In this document: positions 39,964-58,453 of the stretch, piece after piece
Numbering within the stretch: the stretch's first letter is position 1
Layout: each line of letters opens with the position of its first letter
From: Akkermansia muciniphila
GTDB lineage: Bacteria; Verrucomicrobiota; Verrucomicrobiia; Limisphaerales; BJHT01
NCBI GenBank assembly: GCA_945861535.1
Contig: CAMAUZ010000024.1
Coordinates: 1 to 64,000 of the forward strand
Reading direction: 5' to 3'
DNA: 64,000 nt
The notes under the pieces: model-generated
The model's input: only the letters and a program-made list of their open reading frames with translations
Database searches by the model: none
Told to the model about the DNA's origin: nothing
Translations under genes and position numbers: made by a program

Positions 39964-42714
39964 CTACCGGGACGACATCCCAACCAACACACAACGAAAC
40001 CCGTTGTTTTCGTTGCGAGTGTCGGCCGGGGTGCCTTGGCGATACGAGGACAACAGATAGCCAAAACCGGCGATGCGCCACGAACCACCGCGCGACACGC
40101 GGACGCCGCTCACACCATCGGAAAAATCCTCGCACCACTGCCACACATTCCCGCCCATGTCATAGATTCCAAAGCGATTCGCGGCAAAACTCCCCACGGG
40201 CGACGTGTATTCGTAATCATCCACGTTCAAGGTTTGGCCAAGGTTCGCCGCACCGCGTGGCGGCGGCCATTGCACACCCCACGGATACATGCCCTTGATT
40301 TTTACATGCTTGTCGTTCGGAGATCCCTCACGCGCTTCGTTCAAGCCCGCCGCCACGCTCCACTCCCAATCCTTGGGCAGCCGATAACTCTGCGTCGCGG
40401 TCAATTTGCCGTCCTTCCGTTCCTTCTCCGTCAGCCATTTCGTGAACGCCTGCGCATCGTCCCAGCTCACACTCACCACCGGATGCGTCGGTTCTTGCTT
40501 GAAAGGTGGTTTGTCCACCGAACGGCTCGTCGCAGCCGCAAACGCCGCGTAGTCCTGCACCCGCGTGTCCCAGATGCAGAATTGCACCTCCGTCCCCGGC
40601 ACGGGCACGAAGACTTGGCCGAGCGTATTGGTCCAGCGGCTCGTCGTCGTCGGGGGCGCGCTCGCCGGGTTGGGCACTCCGGCAGCGACGGGCGGGGCGG
40701 CGGGTTTCCCCACGCTGGGAGAGGGCACGGCTGCTGCCGGCGCACCGCCAAAACCCGTCAACACCAGTCGAAAACCGCCGCTGCCAAATTTTCGGTCGGG
40801 GGGAAAGCGAACCCAGCGGTGGGAGGATAAGAGGACCTCCGGGATGGCATCATGCCACGATCCGCCACGGAGCACTCGATGCGTCTTGTTGTCGTCGTAC
40901 CAGTCTTCGCACCACTGCCACACATTCCCGGCCATGTCATAGAGGCCGAACGAATTGGTCATAAAATTCCCCACCGGTGATGTGAACGCATGCCCGTCTT
41001 GGTAACCGTCAATACAGGTAGCACCGCCGGAGTTGTAGTTAGCCATTGGCCATCCTGTCTTCGAGGTCTGGTCCGCGAAGTTGCCAGCACCGGGTGGTGG
41101 AGGCCATTGCCTGCCCCACGGATACACATTGGCGATCTTGCCGCTCTTGGCGACAGGGGTGCCGTCGCGCGGCTCATTCAACCCCACCGCCACGCTCCAC
41201 TCCCAATCCATTGGCAATCGATAACTTTGCCCCGCGCTGAGCTTTCCTTCCTGGCGTTCTTTCTCCGTCAGCCACTTGGCAAACGCCTGCGCATCGTCCC
41301 AGTTCACATGCACCACAGGATGCGTTGGCCCCTGCTCAAAGCTCGGCTTTTGCGCAGCGCGGCCCGTCGCGCTCGCAAACGCCGCGTAATCTTGCACCCG
41401 CGTCTCCCACACGCAGAACAACACCTCCGTCCCCGGCACGGGCACGAACACCTGGCCGAGCGAATTGGTCCAGCGGCTCGCCGTCGTCGTGGGCGCGCTT
41501 GTGGGCTTGGCCACGACGGCAGCGACGGACGGTACAGCGGGCTTGGCGACACCGGACGCTGGCGCAGCGGCCGTTGGCGGCGGGTCCTCCGCAGGTTTCC
41601 GCGGTCGGAACACCACTGCCAGGCCGATGAGCAGAAGCACCGCCACGCCGCCGATGATGCCGTAGAGTTTTCCCTTCCCGGAACCTGCCGGCGCAAACGG
41701 AGCCGACGGAGCGGTGAATTCGAGCTCGGTCGGCGCGCTGGAATCCTGCGTGGGCCGTGGCCTGCTATCGGATTGCGAACTCTTCGCGCTCCCCGCGGAC
41801 GCATCCGACGGAGCGGCTCCGCTGACGCTGGCGTGACTGGCGCGTCGGGCCGGAGCCTTCGTGATTCCCATCCGCTCGGCGACCTCACCCGCGGTTTGCG
41901 GTCGTACGGCCGCGTCCTTGTTGAGACAGGCCATGATGGTGGCGGCGACCGCTTCCGGAATCTCGTTCTTGAGGTCAAGTTCCTTCAGTCGCTCCGCCAG
42001 CGTGGGTGGATTGCCCTCGCGAATCTGATGGAGCACGTCCCCTTTGTAGAACGGCGGCTTGCTGGTGAGCAGCTCGAACAGGGTTGCGCCCAGCGAGTAG
42101 ATGTCGTCCGTCGCCTTGGAAGGTTTGCCCGCCAGTTGCTGCGGGCTCATGTAGGACGGCGTGCCGCTGACGCCCATGTCCTTGGTCACCTTGAGCATGG
42201 ATTCGCTGAGCGTGGCGGCCAGCCCGAAGTCCGCCAGTTTCAAACGCCCCTTGGCGTCCAGCAGCATGTTGGCGGGCTTGAGGTCGCGGTGAACGATCTT
42301 CTCCTCGTGCGCGTAGTCGAGGGCATCACAGAGCTGGGCCACGATCGGCACCAGAGTGGGCCAAGGGAAAAGCCGGTTCGGCTGGCCGGCCTTGAGGGCG
42401 CTCAGGGACTGGCCCTCAATGTACTCCATGGTGATGAAGGGCGCCTCACCGGGGAGCTGATAAAAGTCGTGAATCCGGATGATGTTGCGATGCGACAGTT
42501 GCCGGCATTTGCGCGTCTCCCGCCGCATGTCGTCCATCGCTTCGTGGTCGTGGCTCAACTGGGGCGAGAGGAACTTCACCGCCACGTTTTCATGGAGCGT
42601 TGCGTCCTCGGCCAGACAGACGATCCCCATGCCGCCTTCGCCGAGCTTCTTGACGATCTTGAAGCGCCCGCCGCCGAACTCGACACCCGGTTGATAGTGG
42701 TCGCCACCAATCAT
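39964..42714 (-). CDS. Transmembrane Ser/Thr kinase with two formylglycine-enzyme-like domains
   Basis: A 916-residue protein. Kinase about 18-285: LGEGGMGIVCLAED, VAVKFLSP, IVHRDLKPAN, LADFGLAAT, GTPSYMSPQQ. An S/P/A-rich linker leads to one membrane helix (LYGIIGGVAVLLLIGLAVVF). Outside are two FGE-sulfatase (SUMF1-like) domains, about 425-655 and 690-912, each with TNxLGQVFVPVPGTEV, PVVxVxWDDAQAFxKWLTEK, SYRLPxDWEWSVA, the LYDMAGNVWQWCEDW or IYDMGGNVWQWCEDF block and RGGSW. The Cys pair of true FGE was not confirmed, so these may only bind ligands. The two domains are close duplicates. A divergent pair with the FHA-cyclase gene that starts 156 bases away. Confidence 0.92.
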   Translation of the reverse strand: MIGGDHYQPGVEFGGGRFKIVKKLGEGGMGIVCLAEDATLHENVAVKFLSPQLSHDHEAMDDMRRETRKCRQLSHRNIIRIHDFYQLPGEAPFITMEYIEGQSLSALKAGQPNRLFPWPTLVPIVAQLCDALDYAHEEKIVHRDLKPANMLLDAKGRLKLADFGLAATLSESMLKVTKDMGVSGTPSYMSPQQLAGKPSKATDDIYSLGATLFELLTSKPPFYKGDVLHQIREGNPPTLAERLKELDLKNEIPEAVAATIMACLNKDAAVRPQTAGEVAERMGITKAPARRASHASVSGAAPSDASAGSAKSSQSDSRPRPTQDSSAPTELEFTAPSAPFAPAGSGKGKLYGIIGGVAVLLLIGLAVVFRPRKPAEDPPPTAAAPASGVAKPAVPSVAAVVAKPTSAPTTTASRWTNSLGQVFVPVPGTEVLFCVWETRVQDYAAFASATGRAAQKPSFEQGPTHPVVHVNWDDAQAFAKWLTEKERQEGKLSAGQSYRLPMDWEWSVAVGLNEPRDGTPVAKSGKIANVYPWGRQWPPPPGAGNFADQTSKTGWPMANYNSGGATCIDGYQDGHAFTSPVGNFMTNSFGLYDMAGNVWQWCEDWYDDNKTHRVLRGGSWHDAIPEVLLSSHRWVRFPPDRKFGSGGFRLVLTGFGGAPAAAVPSPSVGKPAAPPVAAGVPNPASAPPTTTSRWTNTLGQVFVPVPGTEVQFCIWDTRVQDYAAFAAATSRSVDKPPFKQEPTHPVVSVSWDDAQAFTKWLTEKERKDGKLTATQSYRLPKDWEWSVAAGLNEAREGSPNDKHVKIKGMYPWGVQWPPPRGAANLGQTLNVDDYEYTSPVGSFAANRFGIYDMGGNVWQWCEDFSDGVSGVRVSRGGSWRIAGFGYLLSSYRQGTPADTRNENNGFRCVLVGMSSR

Positions 42715-42870
42715 GGCGGGGAGTTTCTGGCCGGTGGGCTGGGGATTACGAGCGAAATATCCCGCGTCTGTTTGCGGGTTGGTTTTCTTGCGACGGCGGG
42801 ATTTTCGGGCAGTTGAAGATCGACAAACGGTCCCCGTTTACCAGAATGACAACACAACCACTACGACCTC

Positions 42871-44451
42871 ATGTTTTTAATTGTCGCTGATTTTCGCGGG
42901 AAGAAGCTCCGGTTTGATCTGGATTCCGACAATCTCGTGATCGGCCGGACGGCGGATGGCGTAGTGCCGAATGTGGCCTTGAACGACGACCCGGCGGTGG
43001 CTCCGCGGCACGCCCAAGTCTGGGTCGCTGCGGGAACCGTCTGGATCAGGGATTTGGACAGCCCGTCGGGTGTGCTCGTCAACGGCCTGCGAATTGCGCA
43101 GCCGCAGCAGATCGGCCCCGGGGATGAGATCATCGTGGGCAGCACCACCTTGACCGTGACCTCCAGACCGGCGGGTGGGGCGGCGGGCCAGCCAGCCCAA
43201 CCCCCGGCCAAGCCGCAAGCGGAAGCCGACGAGGCGACAGTCACCTTAAAAAGCGAAATGGATGCACGGCGCACGGCAGCGCCGGAATTCAACAGCACCT
43301 CCCAGAAGCAACTGGCCATGCTGTATGAATTGCCCATCCAATTCGCCGCGGAACGGGATCTCCGGAAACTGTTCGGACTGGTACTCAAATCGGTTATCGA
43401 GATCATCCCCGGCGCGAAACGGGGTGCCTTGCTGGTGTTGGATCGGGCCAGCGGGAAGCTGGCTCTGCGGGCGGCAGTGCCGGAGGAAAATCCGCCCATC
43501 AGCCGGACGCTCATCCGTCGCGCGGTGGCCCAGGGCAAAGGCTTCATCTGGTCCAAGGATGCGGAAATGGATGTATCGCAGAGCATGAAGGCGCTGTCCA
43601 TTGCCACCGGGATGTATTGTCCGCTCATGTGGCAGGGTGAGGTCCAGGGCGTCATCTGCGTGGACACGCCCGACCCCAAGCGTTCCTTCGCTGACTCGGA
43701 CCTGCGCTTTCTCATTGCCGTGGCGCATTACGCGGCGGCGGCCTTGTCCAACTCCGCGCTGCAGGCGGACATTGAGTTCAAGAACAAGGTCCAGGACCGG
43801 TTGCTGACCAATTTCTCCCCCAGGCTACGCCAGCGTTTGGTGGACCAAGCGCGGGCAGGGGCACTGGTCCCCGGTGGCGAACGCTCGAAAGTGACGCTGC
43901 TGATGTCGGACATTCGCGGCTTCACGACCACCACGGCGACGATGGACGTGCAACTGGTCGTGGACATGCTCAACGAGTATTTCACCGAGCTGGTGCAGGT
44001 GATTTTTGACCACGACGGCACCATCGATAAGTTCATCGGCGACGCCATTTTGGTCGTGTTCGGCAGTCCGGACGCGGATGCGGACCAGCACGCGAAGGCG
44101 GTGAAGGCGGCCATCGCGATGCAGGCGGCGAATCAGCGCGTCAACGCGCGGCGCAAGGCGCGCGGCGAGGTGTGCTGCGACCTGGGCATCGGGCTGCACT
44201 ACGGCGAGGTGTTGCATGGTTTCATCGGCGCGGAGGATCGGCTCGAATTCACCGTGATCGGCGACACCGTCAACCGCACCGCACGCTATTGCGATGGTGC
44301 CGGCAAGGGCATGATCGTGGTCAGTCCGGAGTTGCATCAGTTTGTGAAGGACCAGTTTGAATTCAAGGCGCTTGCATTTCCCACCAAGCACGAGGGCGAG
44401 TTCAAGGCATTCGAGGTGGTGTTGGGAGAAGGGGCCGGAGTGGTGGTCTAG
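42871..44451 (+). CDS. FHA-GAF-class III adenylate/guanylate cyclase
   Basis: A 526-residue, probably cytoplasmic protein. Residues 1-95 form an FHA domain (DNLVIGRTADG, then PRHAQVWV and SGVLVNGLRI); the Ser normally in SRRH is Ala here (VAPRHA), which may weaken phospho-Thr binding. A linker leads to a GAF domain (about 155-300) and a class III cyclase domain (about 320-500). Catalytic positions look intact: metal Asp347 in MSDIRGFT, Lys387 and Asp391 in DKFIGD, and Asn468/Arg472 in GDTVNRTAR. Lys387 favours ATP, so cAMP is the likely product. It lies between kinases, with a cNMP-binding membrane protein 12 kb on, which fits a shared pathway. Confidence 0.93.
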   Translation: MFLIVADFRGKKLRFDLDSDNLVIGRTADGVVPNVALNDDPAVAPRHAQVWVAAGTVWIRDLDSPSGVLVNGLRIAQPQQIGPGDEIIVGSTTLTVTSRPAGGAAGQPAQPPAKPQAEADEATVTLKSEMDARRTAAPEFNSTSQKQLAMLYELPIQFAAERDLRKLFGLVLKSVIEIIPGAKRGALLVLDRASGKLALRAAVPEENPPISRTLIRRAVAQGKGFIWSKDAEMDVSQSMKALSIATGMYCPLMWQGEVQGVICVDTPDPKRSFADSDLRFLIAVAHYAAAALSNSALQADIEFKNKVQDRLLTNFSPRLRQRLVDQARAGALVPGGERSKVTLLMSDIRGFTTTTATMDVQLVVDMLNEYFTELVQVIFDHDGTIDKFIGDAILVVFGSPDADADQHAKAVKAAIAMQAANQRVNARRKARGEVCCDLGIGLHYGEVLHGFIGAEDRLEFTVIGDTVNRTARYCDGAGKGMIVVSPELHQFVKDQFEFKALAFPTKHEGEFKAFEVVLGEGAGVVV

Positions 44452-44609: not shown

Positions 44610-47600
44610 ATGACTTCCACCTCCCCCTACCGCACCGGTCGTGAGATTGCCCGTGGCGGCATGGGCGCGGTGCTGGACGCGCCGGGACCAGAAGCTCGGG
44701 CGCAGCGTGGCGATGAAGGTGATGCTCCAACGCGACGCCAGCGAGGAGGAGCAGCAGCGGTTCTTGCAGGAGGCGCGGGTGCTCGGTCAGCTCGCGCATC
44801 CCAACATTGTCCCGGTTCACGACGTGGGCACTGATGAAACCGGACGGCTCTTTTACACGATGAAGCTCGTGCTGGGCGGCACGCTGCACGACGTGATCGG
44901 AAAGCTGAAGTCCGGGGACAAGGGCACGCTCGCGAAGTATCCGCTCAACGCGTTGCTCACCGTGTTTCAGAAAGTCTGCGACGCCGTGGCCTTCGCGCAC
45001 TCGCGCGGGATCATCCACCGGGATCTGAAGCCGCAGAACATCATGGTGGGCGAGTTCGGCGAGGTGCTGGTGATGGACTGGGGGCTGGCGAAGATTTTGC
45101 CCGGCAGTGCGGCCGCCGAGGAAGCGGCCAGGACTTTACCTTGGTTGGGACCGGTGACGGCCGGAGCCACAGGCAGCGGAGGACCGGTGCGGCTGGCCGG
45201 AGCAGCTCCGGCGGGCGGATCTGCGGCGAGCGAGATGGTGACGTTGCCGTTGAGCGGCAAGGAAGCGAAAGCGGAGGCCGTGACGCTGCCGCCGGTCGCG
45301 CCACCGCCGTTGCCGGCGATGGCCTTGGAGATCACGCTGCCCGGCCGGGAGAACGGGGCGGGAAGTGCGCCCCCGAACGCCGCCGCGACGGCTCCGAGTA
45401 TGGCGGACGAACCGCCGGGGGCGAATCACAGCCCTCGGGCGACGGCCGCGGTCGGGTCCGGGGCGGGCACCGAAGTGACGTTGCCGTTGGACAATCAGAT
45501 GGCCCAACCGGCCGCCCCCGTGTTCGCCGGAACTCCACCGCCGGAACCGGAGCCGCAGACGAGGCAGCCGGACCCTGGCAGCGGTTCGGCGCCTGCGCCC
45601 AGCGGCGTGTATGCGACCTTGGAAGGCGCGGTGATGGGCACGCCGCACTTCATGTCGCCCGAGCAGGCCGAGGGCAAGATCGCCGAGTTGGACGGGCGCT
45701 CGGACATTTTCTCATTGGGCGGCATTCTCTACGCGCTGCTGACGCTGCGCCCGCCGGTGGAGGGGGATTCACTGGAAGAGATTTTGTCCAAGGTGCGCAG
45801 CGGGACCATTGCGCCGCCCACGGCCTTCGACGCGCCCAGCTCCACCACCCAGGCAAAGCCCAACGCGACCGGCGCGGTGACGGAGCCGCGCAAGATTCAT
45901 CCGCTGCCGCACTGTCCGGCCGGCAAGGTGCCCGCCGCGCTCTCCGCCGTGACGATGAAGGCGCTGACGCGGGACAAGCTGCGGCGGTATCAGACGGTGG
46001 CGGAGTTCACGCGCGACATTGAGGCGTATCAGGGCGGCTTCGCCACGAGCGCGGAGAACGCCAACGCGCTGACGCTGGTGCGCCTGTTCATCCACCGGCA
46101 CAAAACGCTGACCGCCGCCGCCGCGCTCTTCGTCCTGCTGACCATTGGGTTCGTGACCAAAGTCATTGCCAGCGAGCAGAAGGCCAGGACCAACGCCGAA
46201 CAAGCCGCGGCCCATGCGAAGACGGCGGAAGAACACGCCGCGCGAGCCAAAGTTTCCGAAGCCGCCGCCGTCGCGGAAAAGGAAGCGGCCCGCCTGTCCT
46301 CGACCAGGGCGAATCTCGCCCTCGCGGACGCCGCGCTGCGCGAGGGCAATGGCCCCGCGATGCAAGCCGCGCTCGCCGAGGTGCCGGAGGACTTGCGCGA
46401 CTCCACCTGGCGCTACCTGCTTGGCGAGTCAGACTCCTCCATCGCACGCATCAGAACCGGAGCCAGTGTGGTCACCGGCGTGGCGGCGCATCCCCGGCGC
46501 CCGGGTGTGTTCGCGGTGGCGGACGGCAATAGAAAGGTCTTCCTCATCGAGCTGCGCACCGGTGCCAGGCTGCTGGAGTTCACGCCTGAATTCCCACCGA
46601 AATCCAGAGGTGAACTCTCCGCACTCGCTTTTTCCCCCGATGGCCAGCGCATCGCGGTGGGACGAAGTGCCGATGGCGGCATCGTCATCCACAGCGCGCG
46701 GGATGGAAAAAAGCTCCTTGGATGGGACGCACCGCGGACTCAGGAATTGGAGTTCAGCGCGGATGGCCTGCGCCTGTTCCAGAGCACGGAAGTATACAAG
46801 GCCCACAAGTCCCTCCGAATGTGGGAAGCGGCCAGCGGCCTGCCTGCCTGGGAGTATGGGTCGTCGAAAGGAACCAGTCATCCTCACGGTGCCTTCACCC
46901 CGGACGGGCAGCAGGTGCTCACCTTCGGCTACGGTGACGACTTTCGCCTCGTGGATGCGCGGGATGGCGCGGCCATCCGCAGTTTCAAAAGAGAGGGCGC
47001 CCCCATCACTGCATTGGCCATGGCGGGCAACGGTCTGGCGGCGGCGGCGGACCAGCAGGGCTTTGTCAGCGTCCTCGACCTGAAGACCGGAAGCGTTCGG
47101 CTGCGGTTCCGCGTCCATGACACGTCCGTTCATTTCCTCGCGTTCACCCCGGCGGGCGACCAGCTCGCGACCGGCGTTGCGCTGCCCGATGGACAGCAGG
47201 CCATCCACCTCTGGCTGGCGGCGACCGGCGAGCGCCGTCAAGCACTGCTGGGCGGCAGTGGTGAGATTCGGGACATCAGCGTGCATCCGGTTTCGGGTGA
47301 ACTGCTCGTGAGCGGGCCGAACGCGGCTGCGTGGGACCCCACCGGTCAGCCGCCGAGGTGGTATGCCGGCGTAACTCCACTTCAGCCCGCCCGCCCCGTG
47401 TTTTGGGGTTCGGATGAGGTGCTCTTTGCATCTGGGAATCGCGAGGACCTTTTGCTGCACAAACTCCAGCCCGGCGCTCCCGCCATACTCTGGAAGTCCG
47501 TCGGCATAGTCATGCCGCAGAGCGACGTGAGCGCGGATGGGAAGCTCGCGGTGTTCGCCGGGGTGACATACGGCGCCGACTTGTTGTTCCTGCGCAACCC

Positions 47601-48867
47601 CGGCCCCCAGCGCGAGGAAGGCCGCACCATCAAGCTGCAGGGTGGCAAGGACTTCATCCGCCTCAGCGCGGGGGGCGAGCGCGTGGTGGTGGTCGGGAAT
47701 CGGAACAGCAAGGTTGACCTGTTTGACACCACCACCGGCCTGCCGCTGGCCCCGTTTGAACGGGCTGACATGAAACGATTCTGGAGCTTCGCCTGGCTCG
47801 GCAGCAACGGTCAGCACCTCGTGGGACTGGTGACGGCCAAAGCCGAGCGCGGCCTGGCCGGCTCCGAGGAATGGGTCGTCCTCTGGGACGCCGCCAGCGG
47901 CAAAATCGTGCAGCGCGTGACGAACCGCAGCGCGCTGGGCGTGCTCGTCGTCGCACCCGATGGCAGCCGCCTGGCCGAGGCCGGGGCCGACAAAATGGTG
48001 CGCATCCGCGATGCCGCCACGCTCGCCGTGCAGCAGGAGTTTCGCGCCCACGACGGCCCCATCACCGCGCTCGCGTGGCATCCCGTGAAGCCCATCCTCG
48101 CCACCACCTCCACCGACCTCACCATCCGGCTCTGGAACCTCGAAACCGGCCGGCGGCTGGAGGAGCTGCGCGGCCCGCTGACCACGCCGATGGGCCTCGG
48201 CTTCAGCCCCAGTGGCCAGCGCCTCGCGTGTGCCAGCCCGAGTGACAACACGCGCATCTGGGAGCCGGAATCGCTGAACGAAAAACCGGTGCCCACCCAA
48301 CCCAAGGACGGCGCTTGGGAAGACCTCCTCGCCCCGCTTACGCCGGCCATCGTCGACCAGACCGGCAATGGTTGGCGCATGGACAACGGCGCGCTCTTCA
48401 GCCCGAACAAGACCTTCACGACGCTGCCGCTGCCGGGCAACCTGAGCGGCACCAGCTACCAAGTGCGGGTGAAGCTGCGGCAGCTCATGGCGAAGAACGG
48501 ATTCAGTCTCGAACTCCCCGTGGGCAATCACATGGTGGGTTTCGATCTCGATGGCGATCTCGGAAAGTGGACCAGCCTGGCCCTCGCGAACGGCAAGTGG
48601 GGCAAAGGCCTGCCCGGTGCCTTGGCAGGCAAGCAGGTGAAAGACTCCGACCAGCACGACTTGGAAGTGACCGTCCGCCTCAACGGTGCGAACGCCACCA
48701 TCACCGTCACGCTCGACGACCAGCCGCTCTACGAATGGACCGGCCCCATCGCCGCCCTAAGCCAGCATTCATTGTGGAAGACCGCCCCCGGCAGCCTCGC
48801 CCTCGGCACCATGGCCGCCGACTGGGTGGTGTATGAGGTGAAGGTGAAGCGGCTGGACGGCAAGTGA
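44610..48867 (+). CDS. DWG-type Ser/Thr kinase with propeller and lectin-like C-terminus; frameshifted
   Basis: By comparison with the next two genes the start is the ATG at 44610 (MTSTSPYRTGREIARGGMGA), but one extra C at about 44682 breaks the frame between the glycine loop and the rest; the remainder is open from 44641. Corrected length is about 1418 residues. Features: VAMKVML with ATP Lys, IIHRDLKPQN, VMDWGLAKIL (DWG for DFG), then a 187-residue Ala/Pro/Thr insert with four (V/I)TLP steps, then GTPHFMSPEQAEG. A membrane helix near 46110-46160, a helical Ala/Glu segment, WD-like propeller blades and a jelly-roll-like C-terminal part (YQVRVKLRQL, ATITVTLDDQPLYEWTG) follow. First of the tandem array; 26 bases from the next gene. 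Confidence 0.88.
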
Positions 48868-48893
48868 GTTTCCGCTAGCTTCCGCAGCATCGC

Positions 48894-51764
48894 ATGACGC
48901 CCGCCTCCCCCTATCGCACCGGCCGTGAGATTGCCCGGGGCGGCATGGGCGCGGTGCTGGATGCGCGGGATCAGAAGCTCGGCCGCAGCGTGGCGATGAA
49001 GGTCATGCTCCGCCGCAATGCCAGCGAGGAGGAGCAGCAGCGCTTTCTCCAAGAAGCCCGCGTGCTGGGGCAGCTCGCGCATCCCAACATCGTGCCCGTC
49101 CACGACGTGGGCATGAATGAGCAGGGCCGCCTCTTCTACACCATGAAGCTGGTGGTGGGCGTCACGCTGCACGACGTCATCGGCAAGCTGAAGGCCGGGG
49201 ACAAGGACACACTCGCCAAGTATCCGCTCAACGCGCTGCTCACCGCCTTCCAGAAAGTCTGCGACGCCGTCGCCTTCGCGCACTCGCGCGGCATCATCCA
49301 TCGCGACCTCAAGCCGCAGAACATCATGGTCGGCGAGTTCGGCGAGGTGCTGGTGATGGACTGGGGGTTGGCGAAGATTCTGCCGGGCAGTCCAGCTGCG
49401 GCCGAAGCGGCCAGAACTGGACCATTGCGAATACAGGCAGGCACTTCCGCTCCCCAAAGCGCTCCACCGTCAGGGAGTACCACAGGCCTGCGGTCGTCGG
49501 TCGGGATCGATCCGACCGAGGCTGCGACGTTGCCCTTGGTCCCCAAGCCGACCGACGACGCCACGCTCGTCTATGCCCCAGCCCCGGCTCCATCGGGCCC
49601 ATCTGGGATTGCCAGCGAAGCCGCGACTTCGGGTAGCAGCTACGCGACGCTGGAAGGCGCGGTGATGGGGACGCCGCACTACATGCCGCCGGAACAGGCG
49701 GACGGTCGGGTCGCCGAGCTTGATGAACGCTCGGATGTGTATTCCTTGGGCGGCGTGCTCCATGCGCTCCTCACTTTGCGACCGCCCGTGGAAGGAAAGG
49801 ATACCAGCGAAGTGTTGAACAAGGTGCTCCATGGCGACATCACCGCGCCCGCGCTGGCGACCCGGGGCAACAAGCTCCCCCACCTGCCCAACGGCCTCGT
49901 GCCCCATGCGTTGTCGGTCGTGTGCATGAAAGCCTTGCAGGTCGCGCGCCGGGATCGTTACCAGACCGTGACTGAGTTTGAGCAGGATATCGCGGCGTAT
50001 CAGGGCGGTTTTGCCACCAGCGCAGAGGACGCGAACCCGCTCGCCCGGTTTCGCCTCTTCATCCTCCGCCACAAAGTTCTCTCCGCGGTGACTTCGCTGA
50101 CCGTGCTGCTGACCATCTTCTTCGTGGGAACGCTCATCAAAAGCGAAGAATTGGCCAAAGCCCACGCGGAGCGAGCAGACCAGAGCGCCAAGCACGCCAT
50201 GGGCGAGTCGCAAAAGGCGAAAGCCGAGGCGGAGAAGGCGATAGCGATGGCGCAGTTCCTGAGCGGCCTCTTCGATGACGCCGATCCCGTGGCCCGCCAT
50301 GGCCGGGCGATGGGCGCAAGTCCCCGCCGGGGGCCGAGCGTGACAGCGCGCGACATGCTGGATCGAGGTGCGGCCACCTTGCGGACTTCGCTCAAGGACG
50401 ATCCCGCGATCCGGGCCGTGCTGCTGGACAAGGTGGGCAACGTTTACATCAGCATGGGCCTTTATTCGCAAGCCGCACCGCTGGTGGACGAAGCGCTGGA
50501 ACTGCGAACGAAACTCTTCGGTCCGGACCATGTGGAGACGGCGGCCAGCTTGCACACCAAGGGCTTGTTGGACGGCTATCAGGGCCAATACGAGTCGGGG
50601 CTCAAACGAATGAACGCCGCCCTGGACATTTATCGCAAAGGCCATGCTCAGGGGCATCCGCTGGTTTCGGATGTCGCCCTCGATCTCGCCGTGCTGGAAG
50701 TGGCCAACAACAACCTCACGAAGGCCAGCCAGCTCTTGCTGACAGCCTTGGAAATCCGCCGGCGGGCCTTTGGTGAGAACAGTCGCGAAGCATTGGCCCC
50801 GTTGATGTTTCTGGCGGTGTTTGAAAACTCCTCCGGGCGGAGAAACCCGGAGCGCATCATGGAAGTGGCCAAGGTCTGGGACGGGGCCGGGCGGACCGAG
50901 GAATTCGGAGCCTTCGTCAATCTCGGGCTGAACGCCGTGGTTACGGCCCAGCTCGACCCGGCCAAAGCGGCTGATCTCTTTCAGGAAGCCGAACGGCGGG
51001 GCACAGCCCTGTTGGGATCGAACCATCTATACCTAAACATTGTTCGCAATGAGCACGCTGCCTTCCTCAGCAAGACCGGACAACTGCCCGAGGCACGGGA
51101 AAAATACCAGGCCGTCATTTCCAGCGTCCAAAGCGCGCTCGGGACCAACTGCGTGTTTCTCATCGCCCCACTGGAAGGCCTGGCCCGGCTCGAATACGGC
51201 GCGAGAAATTACGCCGTCCTGGCGGGTATCTACCGACAGTTGATCAGCCTGATGGATGCGCAGGCGCAGCGTGAGAGCGCCCAAGTGGAGTCGCGGAAGT
51301 ATAACCGTCATCTGGGCCGGTGGATCGACGCGCTCAACTCCCTGAAGCGGCACGGCGAAGCGGAACAGGAAATTCGCCGCATCCTGCTTTCCATCAGAGA
51401 TGGCGGCATCTATTCGGAACTCAAGCCGGCAGCTTTCGTCGATCGCCTCGGTGTGGCCGTGCTCGGCCAGGCGGGGATCAACTTAGCCCCGGCAGACCTT
51501 GCCGCAGACAACTCCTCGGGTCAGCAAGCGCTATCGGCCGCCAAGCTCTGCGCCAAGGCGGCGGCCGCGCTGGCCAAGCGCACGCCTAATCCCACCGAAG
51601 CGGACCGCCTCGTCATCGGCCTGCTCATGGATCAGGCCGTGATGATCCTCAAAAATGCATTGGCAAGGGGTGCGCCCAAACCACCAGATCTGCGAACCGA
51701 TCCCGACTGGTCGGTTCTCAGGTTGCACAAGGACTTCGCCCCGCTGGTGGAGCCGGGCAAGTAG
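48894..51764 (+). CDS. DWG-type Ser/Thr kinase with TPR region
   Basis: A 956-residue protein, second of the array. Kinase: REIARGGMGAVLDARDQKLG, VAMKVMLRR, IIHRDLKPQNIMV, VMDWGLAKIL, a 103-residue insert (with ATLPLVPKPTDDATLVY) and GTPHYMPPEQADG, with Pro where the sister genes have Ser. Then a membrane helix (VLSAVTSLTVLLTIFFVG) and, instead of a propeller, tetratricopeptide repeats from about residue 500 (VLLDKVGNVYISMGLYSQAA, LHTKGLLDGYQGQYESGLKR), with further helical repeats to the end. So the kinase half was duplicated and joined to a different sensor half. Likely inner-membrane receptor kinase. 26 bases after the first array gene and 129 before the third. Confidence 0.92.
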   Translation: MTPASPYRTGREIARGGMGAVLDARDQKLGRSVAMKVMLRRNASEEEQQRFLQEARVLGQLAHPNIVPVHDVGMNEQGRLFYTMKLVVGVTLHDVIGKLKAGDKDTLAKYPLNALLTAFQKVCDAVAFAHSRGIIHRDLKPQNIMVGEFGEVLVMDWGLAKILPGSPAAAEAARTGPLRIQAGTSAPQSAPPSGSTTGLRSSVGIDPTEAATLPLVPKPTDDATLVYAPAPAPSGPSGIASEAATSGSSYATLEGAVMGTPHYMPPEQADGRVAELDERSDVYSLGGVLHALLTLRPPVEGKDTSEVLNKVLHGDITAPALATRGNKLPHLPNGLVPHALSVVCMKALQVARRDRYQTVTEFEQDIAAYQGGFATSAEDANPLARFRLFILRHKVLSAVTSLTVLLTIFFVGTLIKSEELAKAHAERADQSAKHAMGESQKAKAEAEKAIAMAQFLSGLFDDADPVARHGRAMGASPRRGPSVTARDMLDRGAATLRTSLKDDPAIRAVLLDKVGNVYISMGLYSQAAPLVDEALELRTKLFGPDHVETAASLHTKGLLDGYQGQYESGLKRMNAALDIYRKGHAQGHPLVSDVALDLAVLEVANNNLTKASQLLLTALEIRRRAFGENSREALAPLMFLAVFENSSGRRNPERIMEVAKVWDGAGRTEEFGAFVNLGLNAVVTAQLDPAKAADLFQEAERRGTALLGSNHLYLNIVRNEHAAFLSKTGQLPEAREKYQAVISSVQSALGTNCVFLIAPLEGLARLEYGARNYAVLAGIYRQLISLMDAQAQRESAQVESRKYNRHLGRWIDALNSLKRHGEAEQEIRRILLSIRDGGIYSELKPAAFVDRLGVAVLGQAGINLAPADLAADNSSGQQALSAAKLCAKAAAALAKRTPNPTEADRLVIGLLMDQAVMILKNALARGAPKPPDLRTDPDWSVLRLHKDFAPLVEPGK

Positions 51765-51893
51765 CGCATACTGGCCTTTCGCTCGCGCCACCCAGCGCGA
51801 TGACCTAGGAATGGGAAGTGCGGCGTCCAGGCTGCCGCATGGCGGGCGTTAGTGGTATGATTCAGCTTGTGGCTTGGCTAGAGTCTTATACGC

Positions 51894-54800
51894 ATGGCCA
51901 ATCTGGCTTCTTATCTTCGCGGTCGTGAGATCGCCCGCGGCGGCATGGGCGCGGTGCTGGACGCGCGGGACCAGAAGCTGGGGCGCAGCGTGGCCATGAA
52001 GGTCATGCTCCGCCGGCAGGCCAGCGAGGAGGAGGAACAGCGCTTTCTCCAGGAGGCCCGGGTGCTTGGTCAGTTGGCGCATCCCAACATTGTGCCCGTG
52101 CATGACGTGGGCAAGGACGAGCAGGGACGGCTCTTCTACACGATGAAGCTGGTGCAGGGCGTCACCCTTCACGACGTCATCAGCAAGCTGAAGTCCGCGG
52201 ACAAGGACACGCTGGCCAAGTATCCGCTCACCGCGCTACTGACCATCTTCCAGAAGGTGTGCGACGCCGTGGCGTTCGCGCATTCGCGCGGGATCATCCA
52301 CCGGGACTTGAAGCCGCAGAACGTCATGGTCGGCGAATTCGGCGAAGTGCTGGTGATGGACTGGGGCCTCGCGAAGATACTGCCTGGCAGTGCGGCTGCC
52401 GAGGAAGCGGCCCGGACGGGACCATGGCGGATACCGTCCGGCGCTTCTGCTCCCCAGAGTGCGCCACCGCCGGTGAGTTCGGCCGGCGTGCCGCCAGCGG
52501 CCGGGATTGATCCGGCCGAGGCAGCAACGTTGCCCTTGCTTCCCAAGCCGGCCGACGATGCCGCCACTCTCGCCTATTCCCCGATCCCGGCTCCTTGGGA
52601 CGCACTTGGGATCGCCAGCCAAGCTGCCACCCCCGGCAGCAACTTCGTGACGCTGGACGGCGCGGTGATGGGGACGCCGCACTTCATGTCGCCGGAGCAG
52701 GCGGAGGGCAAGAGCGCCGAGCTGGACGCTCGCTCCGACATCTTCTCGCTGGGCGGCATTCTCTACGCGCTGCTCACGCTGCGCCCGCCGGTGGAGGGCA
52801 ATTCGCTGGAAGAGATCTTGTCGAAGGTGCGTAGCGGGACCATCGCGCCGCCCACGGTCTTTAACGCCCCGAGTTCCACCACGCAGGCCAAGGCGGGCAC
52901 GACTGGTGCGGTGACGGAGCCGCGCAAGATTCATCCCCTGCCGCATTGTCCGGACGGGAAGGTGCCGTCGGCGCTCTCGGCTGTGACGATGAAGGCGCTG
53001 ACGCGGGACAAGGCACGCCGGTATCAGACCGTTGCGGAGTTCACGCAGGACATCGTGGCCTATCAGGGCGGGTTTGCGACGAGTGCGGAGAACGCCAACG
53101 CGCTGACGCTGGCACTACTTTTCTTCCGACGGAACAAGGTGCTGGCCTCAGCGGCGGCGCTTGTGTTGCTGGTCATTCTCATCGCGCTGCCACTGGTGAT
53201 TGCCAGCGAGCAGAAGGCCAAGGCGAACGCGACGCTCGCCGGTCAGAATGAGCTGAAGGCAAATCAGAACGCCGCCACCGCGCGGGCAAACGAGCTGAAG
53301 GCCGAGGCCAATGCCAAGCAGGCAAAGGCGGCCGAGCAGGCCGCGCGCGCCGAGAAGGAACTGACGCGTCGCGCCTTCGCCAGGGCGCAGACCGCGCTCG
53401 CCGATGCGGCCCTGCGCGAGCTGGACACCGTGGCGGCGCGCACCGCGCTGAATGCGGTGCCGGAGGATTTGCGCGATACGAGCTGGGAATACTTGCTGGC
53501 CCGCTCGGACACCTCGCTCGCCACCCTGCGCTCATTGAACAGCGCGGTGATTCGCGCCGTCGCGGCGCATCCAAAGCGGGCCGGGGTGTTCGCCATCATC
53601 GGTGGGGATCACGTCATTTCGCTGGTGGAAGCAGCCACGGGGGTGCGGCTGTTGGATTTTAGCAGCGGCCTTGGCCCCACCCCCGGCGAAGGGTATTCAC
53701 TCGCGTTTTCTCCAGATGGCGAGGAACTGGCCGTCGGCCACACTGCGGTCGCAAAGATCGTCTTTCACAGCGCGCGCGACGGTCGCAAGCTCCGCGAATG
53801 GAAGGCACTCGCGCCGGAAGCCCTCGCGTTCAGTCCGGTTGGTGGCCGCTTGCTCGTCAATGCGAGCCAACAGAAAGAGCGAGGAAGATTGGCCATGTGT
53901 GACGCACAAACCGGCGCGGCGAGGTGGAGTTTGGATGAGCCATCCCACTGGACCCACGCCGCCTTCCACCCCTCTGGCCAGTCGGTGGTGGTCGCGTCCG
54001 GCAAATTCAGCGTGGCGTTGCTCGATGCCGATGATGGCCAAAAAATCCGCGCGCTGCCGGACAGCGGACCCTATGTCAATGCGCTCGCCGTGAGTCATGA
54101 TGGCGAATACGCGGCTTACGGGGACGAACAGGGCGGCATCCGGAGTGTGCGTCTGAAGGACGGCCAGCTCATGCTGAACTTCCGCGCGGCGAATTGCGCC
54201 ATCCGCGCGCTGCACTTCACGCCGGACAACCGCCGCCTCGTCACGCTCACGTATCCGAGAAACCACTCCTACCATCACGTCCGCGTGTGGGACGCGCTCA
54301 CCGGCTACCCTTTGCAGGCGCTGTCCGGCGCGGATGCGCTGTCCACCGGCGCCAGCATCCATCCGGTTTCAGGCGAACTCGTCGTGATGGGCAAACAGGC
54401 GGCCAAGTTCTGGAACCTCAAGCAAATCGAACCCGGGTGGAATGTTCCCGCTTCCGTGAACCTGCCGTGGGCGGGGTTCTGGGGCGGAGACGACACGTTG
54501 CTCCACTTCGACCCGCGCGGACTGCCCTGCGTCTCGCAACTCACCTCCAGCGGCGGCGGAAATGTTCTCTGGCGTGCTGGAACCAATTGCCTGTTCCCCA
54601 TCGCCAGCATCAGTGCGGATGGTCGCTTTGCCCTGGGCGGCGGGCTGTCCGCGCAGTCTGACTTTTTCCTGCTGCAACACGACGGCACGTCCGTGCGGGA
54701 GGTCGCGCATTGGAAACCGCCCTCCAACCCGCAGGTGCTGCGCTTGAGCCCGGCCGGTGACCGCGTCTGGACTGAGTCACAGATGTTCGATGCCACCACG

Positions 54801-55907
54801 GGGAAGCCGCTGTCCACCCAGACCGTCAAAGCGCGTGGCAACTGGGTGGACGGCCACTGGATTTCCTCGAACCGCCTGGTCACCCTCGCGCATGAAAAGG
54901 AGTCGTCCCTCGTGGCCGTTGTTGACGCCAGCACTGGACAGACCCTCAGCTCTGCCACCAACGCCGCGCGCATCCTCGCGCTCGCGGTCGCCCCCGGCGG
55001 GCGGCTCATCGGTGAGGGCGGGCAGGACAAGCTCGTCCGCCTGCGCGACCCGAAGACGCTCGCCGTGCGCCACGAGTTCCGCGCGCACGATGGTGGCGTC
55101 ACCGCGCTGGCCTTCCACCCACGCGAACCCATCATCGCCACGGCATCGGAGGATCTCACGATGCGGGTGTGGAACTACGAAGCCGGCGCGCTGCTGGAGG
55201 AGCTTCGCGGGCCCCAAGTGATTCCGCTCAGCCTGGCGTGGAGTCCCGGTGGCAAGCGCCTGGCGAGCGCCGGAATTGACCGGCTCGTGCACGTCTGGGA
55301 GCCACGCTCGCTCAACACCCGCGCACCGTCCGCACCCGCTGGCACCCGCAACGAATGGGAGTCTCTCCTCGCGCAGATCAAGTCCGACGACGTCGCCACG
55401 AAGGGTCAAGGCTGGGTCTTCGACAACGGCAGCTTGCGCAGTCCCGACCGCAAGTATGCGACCGTGCCGCTGCCCGGCAACTTTGCCCACACCAGTTATC
55501 ACCTCGAGCTCAAAGTGCGCCGTCTCACTCCTGCGGATTCGCTCACTGTTTTTCTCCCGGTTGCGGACCGGCAGACCGGTTTCATGCTCGATGGCTATCC
55601 CCAGGCCGGACATGTGTCAGGCCTCCACTACGTGGATGGCAAAGGCGACACACAACAGGCCAATGCCGTGCGGGGCTTGCAGGTGAAGGATTCGGAGTCT
55701 CACCAGCTTGATCTCATCGTGCGCGTCGGTCCCGTGACCTCAAGCATCGAAGTGCAGTTCGACGAACGCCCGCTCTACCGGTGGACTGGATTGCCAACGG
55801 CACTGAGCATGAACGGCCGCTTCATCGGACTGGCTTCCCACCAGCTCGGTCTCAGCGCGCACAAGCCTGACTGGGTTATCGAAGCCGCGCGCGTGAAACG
55901 GTTTTGA
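51894..55907 (+). CDS. DWG-type Ser/Thr kinase with propeller and lectin-like C-terminus
   Basis: A 1337-residue protein, third of the array and the intact counterpart of the frameshifted first one. Kinase with GREIARGGMGAVLDARDQKL, VAMKVMLRRQ, IIHRDLKPQNVMV, VMDWGLAKIL, a 104-residue insert holding ATLPLLPKPADDAATLAY, and GTPHFMSPEQAEG. A membrane helix (VLLVILIALPLVIA) is followed by a long Ala/Glu/Lys coiled coil, a propeller (SVAFSPxG-like blades, for instance AFHPREPIIATASEDLTMRV and SPGGKRLASAGIDRLVHVWE) and the same jelly-roll-like end as the first gene (YHLELKVRRLTPADSL, SSIEVQFDERPLYRWTG). The extracellular part would sense a ligand. Confidence 0.92.
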   Translation: MANLASYLRGREIARGGMGAVLDARDQKLGRSVAMKVMLRRQASEEEEQRFLQEARVLGQLAHPNIVPVHDVGKDEQGRLFYTMKLVQGVTLHDVISKLKSADKDTLAKYPLTALLTIFQKVCDAVAFAHSRGIIHRDLKPQNVMVGEFGEVLVMDWGLAKILPGSAAAEEAARTGPWRIPSGASAPQSAPPPVSSAGVPPAAGIDPAEAATLPLLPKPADDAATLAYSPIPAPWDALGIASQAATPGSNFVTLDGAVMGTPHFMSPEQAEGKSAELDARSDIFSLGGILYALLTLRPPVEGNSLEEILSKVRSGTIAPPTVFNAPSSTTQAKAGTTGAVTEPRKIHPLPHCPDGKVPSALSAVTMKALTRDKARRYQTVAEFTQDIVAYQGGFATSAENANALTLALLFFRRNKVLASAAALVLLVILIALPLVIASEQKAKANATLAGQNELKANQNAATARANELKAEANAKQAKAAEQAARAEKELTRRAFARAQTALADAALRELDTVAARTALNAVPEDLRDTSWEYLLARSDTSLATLRSLNSAVIRAVAAHPKRAGVFAIIGGDHVISLVEAATGVRLLDFSSGLGPTPGEGYSLAFSPDGEELAVGHTAVAKIVFHSARDGRKLREWKALAPEALAFSPVGGRLLVNASQQKERGRLAMCDAQTGAARWSLDEPSHWTHAAFHPSGQSVVVASGKFSVALLDADDGQKIRALPDSGPYVNALAVSHDGEYAAYGDEQGGIRSVRLKDGQLMLNFRAANCAIRALHFTPDNRRLVTLTYPRNHSYHHVRVWDALTGYPLQALSGADALSTGASIHPVSGELVVMGKQAAKFWNLKQIEPGWNVPASVNLPWAGFWGGDDTLLHFDPRGLPCVSQLTSSGGGNVLWRAGTNCLFPIASISADGRFALGGGLSAQSDFFLLQHDGTSVREVAHWKPPSNPQVLRLSPAGDRVWTESQMFDATTGKPLSTQTVKARGNWVDGHWISSNRLVTLAHEKESSLVAVVDASTGQTLSSATNAARILALAVAPGGRLIGEGGQDKLVRLRDPKTLAVRHEFRAHDGGVTALAFHPREPIIATASEDLTMRVWNYEAGALLEELRGPQVIPLSLAWSPGGKRLASAGIDRLVHVWEPRSLNTRAPSAPAGTRNEWESLLAQIKSDDVATKGQGWVFDNGSLRSPDRKYATVPLPGNFAHTSYHLELKVRRLTPADSLTVFLPVADRQTGFMLDGYPQAGHVSGLHYVDGKGDTQQANAVRGLQVKDSESHQLDLIVRVGPVTSSIEVQFDERPLYRWTGLPTALSMNGRFIGLASHQLGLSAHKPDWVIEAARVKRF

Positions 55908-55916
55908 TCAGCGCGC

Positions 55917-55991
55917 CGCCAGGGTGGTGTATGAAGTCGAGGTGAAGCGGCTGGACGGGAAGTGAGATTTCGCTAATCTCCGGCCCATCGC
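55917..55991 (+). repeat. Duplicated gene-junction segment of the kinase array
   Basis: The 75 bases (GTGGTGTATGAAGTCGAGGT, AAGCGGCTGGACGGGAAGTG, then ATTTCGCTAATCTCC and ATCGCATGA) match the 3' end of the first array gene plus the spacer before the second (48825-48896), and the leader before the first (44560-44610). A recombination footprint. Confidence 0.8.
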
Positions 55992-56087
55992 ATGAACCCC
56001 GGCTCTGCTTACACCCCCGGCCGCGAGCTCGCCCGCGGCGGCATGCGGGCCATCCTCTCGGCCACGGACCAATCCTTCGACCGCTAG
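55992..56087 (+). pseudogene. Stub of a fourth array kinase
   Basis: Thirty-one codons, MNPGSAYTPGRELARGGMRA then ILSATDQSFDR and a TAG. The start equals that of the three array kinases (S-P-Y-R-T-G-R-E-I-A-R-G-G-M-G-A), with the glycine loop altered to GGMRA. Nothing kinase-like follows. Confidence 0.85.
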
Positions 56088-56524: not shown

Positions 56525-58453
56525 ATGGATCCATTCAACGAAAAAAAATTCCGACTTTCCGCCGCGGTGGAGTTTGCGGACCTCCCCGATGGCGTGCGGG
56601 TGCTGAAACAGCGGGTGCGCGGAGAGTATCTGGTCCTGACTCCGGAGCAGCAGCGGGTGCTGGCGTTGTTCGACGGACGGCAAACCGTGCATGAGGTGCT
56701 GCAAGGACTGCTCCAGGGGGAAAGTCATCCAAAGCTCCGCGCCTTTTACGACGTGGTGCTCGCCGCCCAGGCGAAGGGCTTTCTGTATGAAGGCGACTCG
56801 GAACCGCCCAGCGCTGCGGCCACGGGCCGTCGCTGGAATGTCCGTTGCACCCCGACCAGCGCGGTGGCGCTGGCCTTGGGCCTCATCGGTGCCGGAGCTT
56901 TCGCGGTGGGGGTTTCGGCGGTGCCGATGCTTCCCGGCAATCCGATCGGTTGGTGCGTCGCGCTGGCGGCGATCTCGCTGGGACTGAGTCTCGCGTCGCT
57001 GTTGGCGGGTGCGGTACTGAGCGGTCTGGGGCGGGAGATCTACCGCCCGGAGCTGCGCATGGACATGGTGCTGCCGTTTTTCTCCGTGGATACGCGGGAC
57101 GCCTTGATGGGCGGTCGCACGGTGGAGGCGCTGACCGCGGTGCAGATGCTCGCCGCGCCGTTCGCGGTCGCGCTGGTCGGGTGGGCGCTGGATTCCAATG
57201 CGATCCTGCTCGCCGGCTGGATCACGGCGCTGGTGTTGAGTTCCCCCTTCGGCAACTCGCCGGCGCACGCGCTGCTGCACGCGCTCTTTCGCAAGCAACA
57301 TGAGCTGCCGCGTTGTGCGGATACGTTTCTGAACCAGAAGCTTCTCGTGCAACTGCTCAACTTTCGGGAGTCGCTGACCGAGGAGCGCTACTTCCTCATC
57401 CACTCGACGTGGGCGGTGTTGTGGCTCGGCGCGGTGTTCCGGTTTGCCTCCGAGCAGATGGCCCGGCAGGCAAACTTCATCTTCGAGCCGGGGGCGCCAA
57501 CGGTGATCTTCCTGTTGGCCTTGGTGCTGGCGGCACCGCTCGCCTATGGACTCTGGCTCATCGGCAAGGCCGGCCACCGGCTGTTCGCGCCCAAATTCTC
57601 CCCCGCCGAGACGAAGCTGAAACCGGGCGGCGACGGGGTGCGGCGGCCCGGTCCCGACGCGACGGTCAAATTCCTGTCCGACACGCTCTTGTTCTCGCAG
57701 TTGGCCGCGGCGGAAATCCGCGCCGTGGCCGAGGCGATGGACTTCTTAACCGTGAAACCCGGCACGCTCATCATCCGCGAGCGCGACCGGGGCGACCTGA
57801 TGTTTGTCATCCATGACGGCCGGGTGGAGGTGCGGAAGGAGGACGAAGCCGGGGTGAGTCGTCCGGTGGCGCAGCTTGCCCGCGGTGATGTTTTCGGCGA
57901 GATCGCGCTGCTGCGGCAGGTGCCACGCAACAGCTCCGTCGTCGCGCTGGAAGGAACGGAACTCTTTTCGCTCAAGAAGGCGGATTTCGACCGGTTGCTG
58001 CTCTCCACGCTGGGCGCGCAGAAAATTCAGGAGGTCGTGCAGGTGTGCGCCTTCCTGCGACGCCATGCCATCTTCTCGGACTGGCCGCCCTATGCACTCA
58101 TGAAGGTTGCCGGGCAGTTCACTTTTCAAGACTCGGCCGCCGGGGCGACCGTGATCGCCGAACGGCAGCCGAACGAGTTTTTTTACTTGGTGTATGAGGG
58201 TGAATTCGAAGTGCGCAAGGCCGGGGCGCGGGTGGCGACCCTCGGTCCGGGCGACTTCTTCGGCGAAGTCAGCTTGCTCCAAGGAACCGTTGCTTCGGCG
58301 GATGTGGTCGCCGTGCGGAACAGTCGCTGCCTAAAACTGGGCCGGGACAGTTTCCTCCAACTGGTCAGCCGCGACTTCACCACCGGCATGGCCATTGAGC
58401 GCGCCTCGGAGCGACGCGTGTCGGCACTGAAGAAAAAGGGGGCTGCCAGATGA
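56525..58453 (+). CDS. PqqD-like, multi-spanning membrane protein with two cNMP-binding domains
   Basis: A 642-residue protein. Residues about 10-85 resemble PqqD or peptide-binding winged domains (YLVLTPEQQRVLALFDGRQT then VHEVLQGLL). Residues about 110-345 hold several membrane helices in the arrangement of site-2-protease-like proteins; the place of HExxH reads HALLH (H248, H252), so proteolysis is doubtful. Two cyclic-nucleotide-binding domains follow (about 380-495 and 505-620). In the first, the phosphate cassette GDVFGEIALLRQVPRNSSV keeps Glu459 and Arg468; in the second (GDFFGEVSLLQGTVASADV) the Arg is Ala590, so only the first is likely to bind cAMP. It overlaps the next gene by 4 nt, thus translational coupling. 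Confidence 0.85.
   Translation: MDPFNEKKFRLSAAVEFADLPDGVRVLKQRVRGEYLVLTPEQQRVLALFDGRQTVHEVLQGLLQGESHPKLRAFYDVVLAAQAKGFLYEGDSEPPSAAATGRRWNVRCTPTSAVALALGLIGAGAFAVGVSAVPMLPGNPIGWCVALAAISLGLSLASLLAGAVLSGLGREIYRPELRMDMVLPFFSVDTRDALMGGRTVEALTAVQMLAAPFAVALVGWALDSNAILLAGWITALVLSSPFGNSPAHALLHALFRKQHELPRCADTFLNQKLLVQLLNFRESLTEERYFLIHSTWAVLWLGAVFRFASEQMARQANFIFEPGAPTVIFLLALVLAAPLAYGLWLIGKAGHRLFAPKFSPAETKLKPGGDGVRRPGPDATVKFLSDTLLFSQLAAAEIRAVAEAMDFLTVKPGTLIIRERDRGDLMFVIHDGRVEVRKEDEAGVSRPVAQLARGDVFGEIALLRQVPRNSSVVALEGTELFSLKKADFDRLLLSTLGAQKIQEVVQVCAFLRRHAIFSDWPPYALMKVAGQFTFQDSAAGATVIAERQPNEFFYLVYEGEFEVRKAGARVATLGPGDFFGEVSLLQGTVASADVVAVRNSRCLKLGRDSFLQLVSRDFTTGMAIERASERRVSALKKKGAAR

What the first reader, a model, noticed from the sequence alone, without database searches (positions are those of the whole stretch)
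44610..56087. Kinase array with DWG and very long activation-segment inserts carrying a shared TLP(L) motif
In three adjacent kinases DFG is DWG and the stretch between it and GTPHxM(S/P)PE is about 187, 103 and 104 codons, while typical kinases have some 20-30. Inserts are Ala/Pro/Thr-rich and vary, yet each contains a TLP(L) step: four in the first gene (Thr codons at 45241, 45283, 45334, 45478), and one at 49527 and 52527 in the others. Kinase HRD and APE-type motifs remain, so activity is plausible. The conserved Thr within a variable loop could be an autophosphorylation or docking site.
Basis: partly seen in the sequence, partly recalled or inferred. Interest (0 to 1): 0.7.

Follow-up and report, generated by a model that had tools for sequence, protein, structure and literature searches.

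The report
Bacterial kinases with threonine-rich activation inserts
Three neighbouring membrane kinases of a Verrucomicrobiota bacterium carry a long floppy insert in the loop that normally switches a kinase on, and across relatives that insert is studded with threonines set in the sequence context that bacterial kinases are known to phosphorylate, so the loop looks like a multi-site phosphorylation tail.

Summary
Three tandem PknB-type kinases have DWG instead of DFG and activation-segment inserts of 184, 100 and 101 residues; the first has five TLP steps, not four. All three belong to one clade of 25 sampled kinases in this bacterial order (tree support 98/92), all with inserts of 76-184 residues; DWG kinases outside it have 30-85. 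The literal TLP(L) motif is only one form (TLP in 15 of 25, TLPL in 10). The shared element is wider: acidic at -3, small at -1, Thr, Leu/Val/Ile at +1, often Pro or Val at +2 and Leu/Val at +3. Every member has at least one T[LVI]. It is Thr-specific (44 of 137 Thr but 3 of 115 Ser are followed by Leu/Val/Ile), about twice as conserved as other insert residues, and absent from other inserts and, nearly, from other A/P/T-rich linkers. It resembles the reported substrate motif of Mycobacterium PknA. Best reading: a disordered multi-site phospho-Thr array, filled by self- or cross-phosphorylation and perhaps read by FHA domains, which are fused to relatives of these kinases. Phosphorylation and reader are inferred. 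Architecture otherwise known (kinase-TM-WD40/TPR). A new variant of a known kind.

The parts
44610..48867 (+). Kinase 1: PknB-type kinase, TM helix, WD40 propeller. Uninterrupted ORF only from 44641; frame break at about 44681
45085..45636 (+). Activation-segment insert of kinase 1, 184 aa, five TLP (Thr codons 45133, 45241, 45283, 45334, 45478); ends at the canonical activation-loop Thr codon 45616 (YATLEGAVM)
48894..51764 (+). Kinase 2: PknB-type kinase, TM helix, TPR
49368..49667 (+). Activation-segment insert of kinase 2, 100 aa; T-L sites at Thr codons 49527 (EAATLPL) and 49563 (DDATLVY); canonical loop Thr codon 49647
51894..55907 (+). Kinase 3: PknB-type kinase, TM helix, WD40 propeller; K36, E54, HRD, D156 conserved
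52368..52670 (+). Activation-segment insert of kinase 3, 101 aa, predicted disordered; T-L sites at Thr codons 52527 (EAATLPL) and 52566 (DAATLAY); invariant loop Thr253 codon 52650
42871..44451 (+). FHA-GAF-adenylate cyclase next to the array; its FHA domain lacks two of the usual phosphopeptide-contact residues
   Evidence: PMC5549992

Best explanation
These are membrane-anchored PknB-type Ser/Thr kinases with conserved catalytic residues (cytosolic kinase domain, TM helix, C-terminal WD40 or TPR sensor) of one Verrucomicrobiota clade. Their activation segment has been extended by a disordered 76-184-residue insert that works as a multi-site threonine phospho-acceptor array. The sites ([DE]-x-[AG]-T-[LVI]-[PVA]-[LVS]) are phosphorylated by the kinase itself or its tandem paralogues. 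The resulting phosphothreonines serve as docking points, most plausibly for FHA-domain proteins acting in trans. DWG in place of DFG may keep the kinase in the active conformation, as in CK2-alpha, so the loop is freer to take on docking. Shown: the inserts, their clade, predicted disorder, the Thr-specific conserved motif and its match to a reported bacterial kinase motif. Inferred: phosphorylation, FHA reading, and the effect of DWG.
For: Kinase fold: best matches are M. tuberculosis PknB by sequence and by structure (1o6y). AF2: core pLDDT mostly above 90, residues about 180-255 below 50. HRDLKP, N143, D156 and G158 invariant, K36 and E54 at least 90% conserved. Clade: 25 kinases, support 98/92, all with inserts of 76-184 aa. 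Motif excess in 15 divergent inserts: TL 26 against 7.6 expected, TLP 12 against 1.1, TLPL 9 against 0.06, SL 0 against 7.2. T->[LVI] 44 of 137 against S->[LVI] 3 of 115, Fisher p 2e-10; acidic at -4 to -2 at 29 of 44 T[LVI] against 23 of 90 other Thr. Controls: 111 other A/P/S/T/G-rich stretches have TL 41 against 30.7 and TLP 5 against 3.9; DFG inserts, short DWG inserts and DWG kinases outside the order show none. Literature motif: sites losing phosphorylation on PknA depletion have acidic -3 (among others), Pro +2, Leu/Val +3 (PMC7164672); at every insert Thr these are enriched (29 vs 12.8, 27 vs 18.3, 29 vs 16.4) and at Ser none is. Conservation 0.79 against about 0.4. No DNA tandem repeat. 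FHA domains are fused N-terminally to relatives, and 12 FHA matches are in this genome, several with intact binding residues. Bacterial precedent for FHA contact with activation-loop residues: PknB-GarA (title cited in PMC6213207), PknQ-MupFHA (PMC4238996). CK2-alpha DWG disfavours DFG-out (PMC9608649).
Against: No phosphoproteomic or biochemical data. The FHA domain next to the array has Ser to Ala (VAPRH) and Asn to Ser (DSPSG) at positions that contact phosphopeptide in Rad53, so it may not bind pThr (PMC5549992). An FHA gene near a long-insert kinase was seen only here and in one other genome's contig. Relatives with a fused FHA lie outside the long-insert clade and mostly lack T-L sites in their own inserts. 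Without the window's genes the Pro+2 part of the literature motif is no longer significant (18 vs 15.5). Sequences in the tests are still related; a shuffle ignores that.
Confidence: 0.5

Rival explanations
1. The T-L sites are short docking motifs for a partner (phosphatase, substrate or adaptor) that binds the unphosphorylated peptide; phosphorylation is not needed.
For: Short, degenerate, turning-over motif in disordered sequence is typical of docking motifs. Precedent: an activation-loop insertion in plant D-group MAP kinases docks PP1 (PMC12817480).
Against: Strict Thr over Ser choice and the fit to a bacterial kinase substrate motif around Thr only are not expected of a plain docking motif.
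Confidence: 0.22
2. The insert is an autoinhibitory pseudosubstrate: T-L segments fold back into the kinase's own cleft until phosphorylated or displaced.
For: Sites resemble both a bacterial kinase substrate motif (PMC7164672) and the loop's own ATLEG Thr.
Against: AF2 leaves the insert unplaced; number and position of sites vary widely, whereas one well-placed segment would do.
Confidence: 0.13
3. Low-complexity drift: the insert is a neutral Ala/Pro/Thr-rich linker and TLP is a chance or replication product.
For: Composition is A/P/S/G/T-rich and length varies; other such linkers show a slight TL excess (41 against 30.7).
Against: 3.4-fold TL excess with no SL, no DNA tandem repeat, and Thr of T[LVI] twice as conserved as neighbours.
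Confidence: 0.1

Closest known systems
Planctomycetota membrane Ser/Thr kinases with C-terminal WD40 or TPR arrays (PMC11032199)
   Same: Kinase domain, TM helix, WD40 or TPR repeats predicted periplasmic; lineage-specific expansion
   Different: That paper's main text does not mention DWG, activation loops or inserts (term search)
Mycobacterium PknB / GarA and M. ulcerans PknQ / MupFHA
   Same: PknB is the nearest solved kinase; activation-loop residues reported to mediate recruitment of an FHA protein (PMC6213207 ref. 32, PMC4238996)
   Different: Those are reported for ordinary-length activation loops with few sites (established knowledge); here up to five T-L sites in a 76-184-residue insert, and no reader is shown
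Protein kinase CK2-alpha
   Same: DWG instead of DFG (PMC9608649)
   Different: Eukaryotic, no long activation-segment insert (established knowledge); DWG is independent
Plant D-group MAP kinases
   Same: Activation-loop insertion used as docking site (PP1, PMC12817480)
   Different: Different insertion, partner and kingdom

Membership tests
Active Hanks-type (PknB-like) Ser/Thr kinase | Catalytic Lys, Glu, HRD, metal-binding Asp, APE-type motif | tested here: met
   (kinases 2 and 3; kinase 1 has a frame break between Gly loop and catalytic Lys)
Active Hanks-type (PknB-like) Ser/Thr kinase | Measured kinase activity | not testable with these tools
   Sequence only
Planctomycetota-type kinase-TM-WD40/TPR receptor kinases | Kinase domain followed by TM helix and WD40 or TPR repeats | tested here: met
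   (Pkinase, WD40, TPR); hydrophobic segment read by eye, no TM predictor run
pThr array read by FHA (PknB/GarA-like recruitment) | Thr-specific, conserved sites fitting a bacterial kinase motif in the activation segment | tested here: met
pThr array read by FHA (PknB/GarA-like recruitment) | A competent FHA reader encoded beside the kinase | tested here: not met
   Neighbouring FHA lacks the Ser and Asn contacts; intact FHA domains exist elsewhere in the genome
pThr array read by FHA (PknB/GarA-like recruitment) | Sites phosphorylated and bound by FHA | not testable with these tools
   Needs biochemistry

The most novel reading that the evidence does not exclude
A bacterial counterpart of a receptor-kinase phospho-tail, placed inside the activation segment: a CK2-like always-active DWG kinase whose loop has become a tunable multivalent phospho-Thr scaffold that recruits FHA proteins in proportion to the number of sites, perhaps replacing a lost fused FHA domain.
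Probability: 0.25. Interest if true: 0.75.

Novelty: new variant of a known kind. Interest (0 to 1): 0.5.

Why it matters
Few inputs or outputs are known for the many Ser/Thr kinases of Planctomycetota and Verrucomicrobiota. A phospho-site array encoded in the kinase itself gives named residues to test and a candidate output (FHA proteins), and would show that an activation segment can serve as a multivalent scaffold.

Tried and rejected
TLP(L) as the exact conserved unit: rejected, it is one form of a wider motif. DNA repeat expansion: no tandem repeat in the inserts, and the five TLP of kinase 1 use different codons. GC-driven composition: other A/P/S/T/G-rich stretches of the same loci lack the excess and SL is absent. 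The neighbouring FHA-GAF-cyclase as obvious reader: weakened by its degenerate binding residues. General trait of DWG kinases: rejected, absent outside the clade. Literature searches for long activation-loop inserts in bacterial kinases found no description; the library lacks most subscription papers.

Full report
Observation. The window holds three tandem kinase genes (44610/44641-48867, 48894-51764, 51894-55907). Each has HRDLKPQN, VMDWG and GTPH[FY]M[SP]PE, with 184, 100 and 101 codons between DWG and GTP. A fifth TLP in kinase 1 (Thr codon 45133) and a second T-L site in kinases 2 and 3 were missed. Kinase 1 has a frame break at about 44681, between the Gly-rich loop and the catalytic Lys, so it is either a recent pseudogene-type lesion or an assembly error; the rest of its frame is open.

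What they are. Pfam gives Pkinase plus WD40 (kinases 1 and 3) or TPR (kinase 2). The nearest solved relative is M. tuberculosis PknB by sequence and by fold. AlphaFold2 with 38 aligned kinases gives a confident kinase core (mostly above 90) and a disordered insert at residues about 180-255 (below 50). In the 38-row alignment HRDLKP, N143, D156, W157, G158, the loop Thr253 and the GTP/PE residues are invariant. The architecture is that described for Planctomycetota kinases, with repeats predicted periplasmic (PMC11032199), so the insert should be cytosolic.

Where the insert occurs. Homologues came from the whole-genome searches and the regions taken from them. A tree of 74 DWG kinase domains without the inserts puts the window's three in a clade of 25 (98/92) in which every member has a 76-184-residue insert. 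The 49 others have 30-85, median 46. Only 15 of 320 genomes of the order had a match at E <= 1e-60. So DWG is common and long inserts are a clade trait.

What is conserved in it. From 71 distinct T[LVIM] sites the profile is D/E at -3 (37 of 71), A/G at -1, L/V/I at +1, P/V/A at +2, S/L/V at +3. In 15 inserts under half identical to each other, TL is 26 against 7.6 expected by shuffling, TLP 12 against 1.1, TLPL 9 against 0.06, SL 0 against 7.2 (that set includes three long inserts outside the clade). In 15 representatives of the clade alone (under 55% identical), 44 of 137 Thr but 3 of 115 Ser are followed by L/V/I (p 2e-10), and acidic residues at -4 to -2 mark 29 of 44 such Thr against 23 of 90 others. 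All 25 members have at least one T[LVI], 21 at least two, 22 with an acidic residue, 15 TLP, 10 TLPL. Within two subclades the Thr of T[LVI] is identical at 0.79, against 0.39-0.46 for other Thr and 0.39-0.44 for other residues; the aligner may favour such matches somewhat. Other A/P/S/T/G-rich stretches in the same loci, DFG inserts, shorter DWG inserts and DWG kinases elsewhere in the phylum do not show it. There is no DNA tandem repeat.

A test with a motif from outside. In M. tuberculosis, phosphosites lost on PknA depletion are enriched for acidic residues at several upstream positions including -3, Pro at +2 and Leu/Val at +3 (PMC7164672). Applied to every Thr in the 15 clade inserts, without using the +1 residue: acidic -3 29 against 12.8, Pro +2 27 against 18.3 (P 0.019), Leu/Val +3 29 against 16.4 (P 0.001). 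Around Ser none is enriched, nor around Thr outside the clade. Leaving out the window's genes, acidic -3 and Leu/Val +3 hold (24 vs 11.6, 25 vs 14.7) but Pro +2 does not (18 vs 15.5).

FHA. Thr over Ser is what FHA domains typically demand (established knowledge). FHA domains are fused N-terminally to DWG kinases in related clades but were not found in long-insert members. This genome has 12 FHA matches, several with intact contact residues; the one beside the array has lost two of three (residues after PMC5549992). Recruitment of FHA proteins through activation-loop residues is reported for PknB/GarA (title in PMC6213207) and PknQ/MupFHA (PMC4238996).

DWG. In CK2-alpha the same replacement adds a hydrogen bond and disfavours the inactive DFG-out state (PMC9608649). 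Whether it does so here is inference.

Verdict. A real, clade-specific, Thr-specific conserved feature in the activation segment. Phospho-acceptor array is the best reading (0.5 for the whole statement; the FHA step alone is less certain). Known kinase kind, new variant.

Noticed in passing
window 44660-44700: One extra C relative to kinases 2 and 3 breaks the frame of kinase 1 between Gly-rich loop and catalytic Lys.
   Followed up: partly
window 42871-44451 and 56525-58453: An FHA-GAF-adenylate cyclase and a protein with cyclic-nucleotide-binding domains flank the kinase array, a possible cyclic-nucleotide module.
   Followed up: no
G000:C4:24548-27132 (L239 in part) and window 39964-44451: A kinase on the minus strand next to a divergent FHA-GAF-cyclase-like gene occurs at both places in this genome.
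   Followed up: no
window 51894-55907, residues about 321-352, and kinase 1: Kinases 1 and 3 have a second, shorter insert in the C-lobe that kinase 2 lacks; AF2 confidence dips there.
   Followed up: no
inserts of L036-L039, L113, L164, L165: A second short conserved block, hydrophobic-x-F-[SGT] (APKLAFGS, PLVFSA), lies near the end of many inserts.
   Followed up: no
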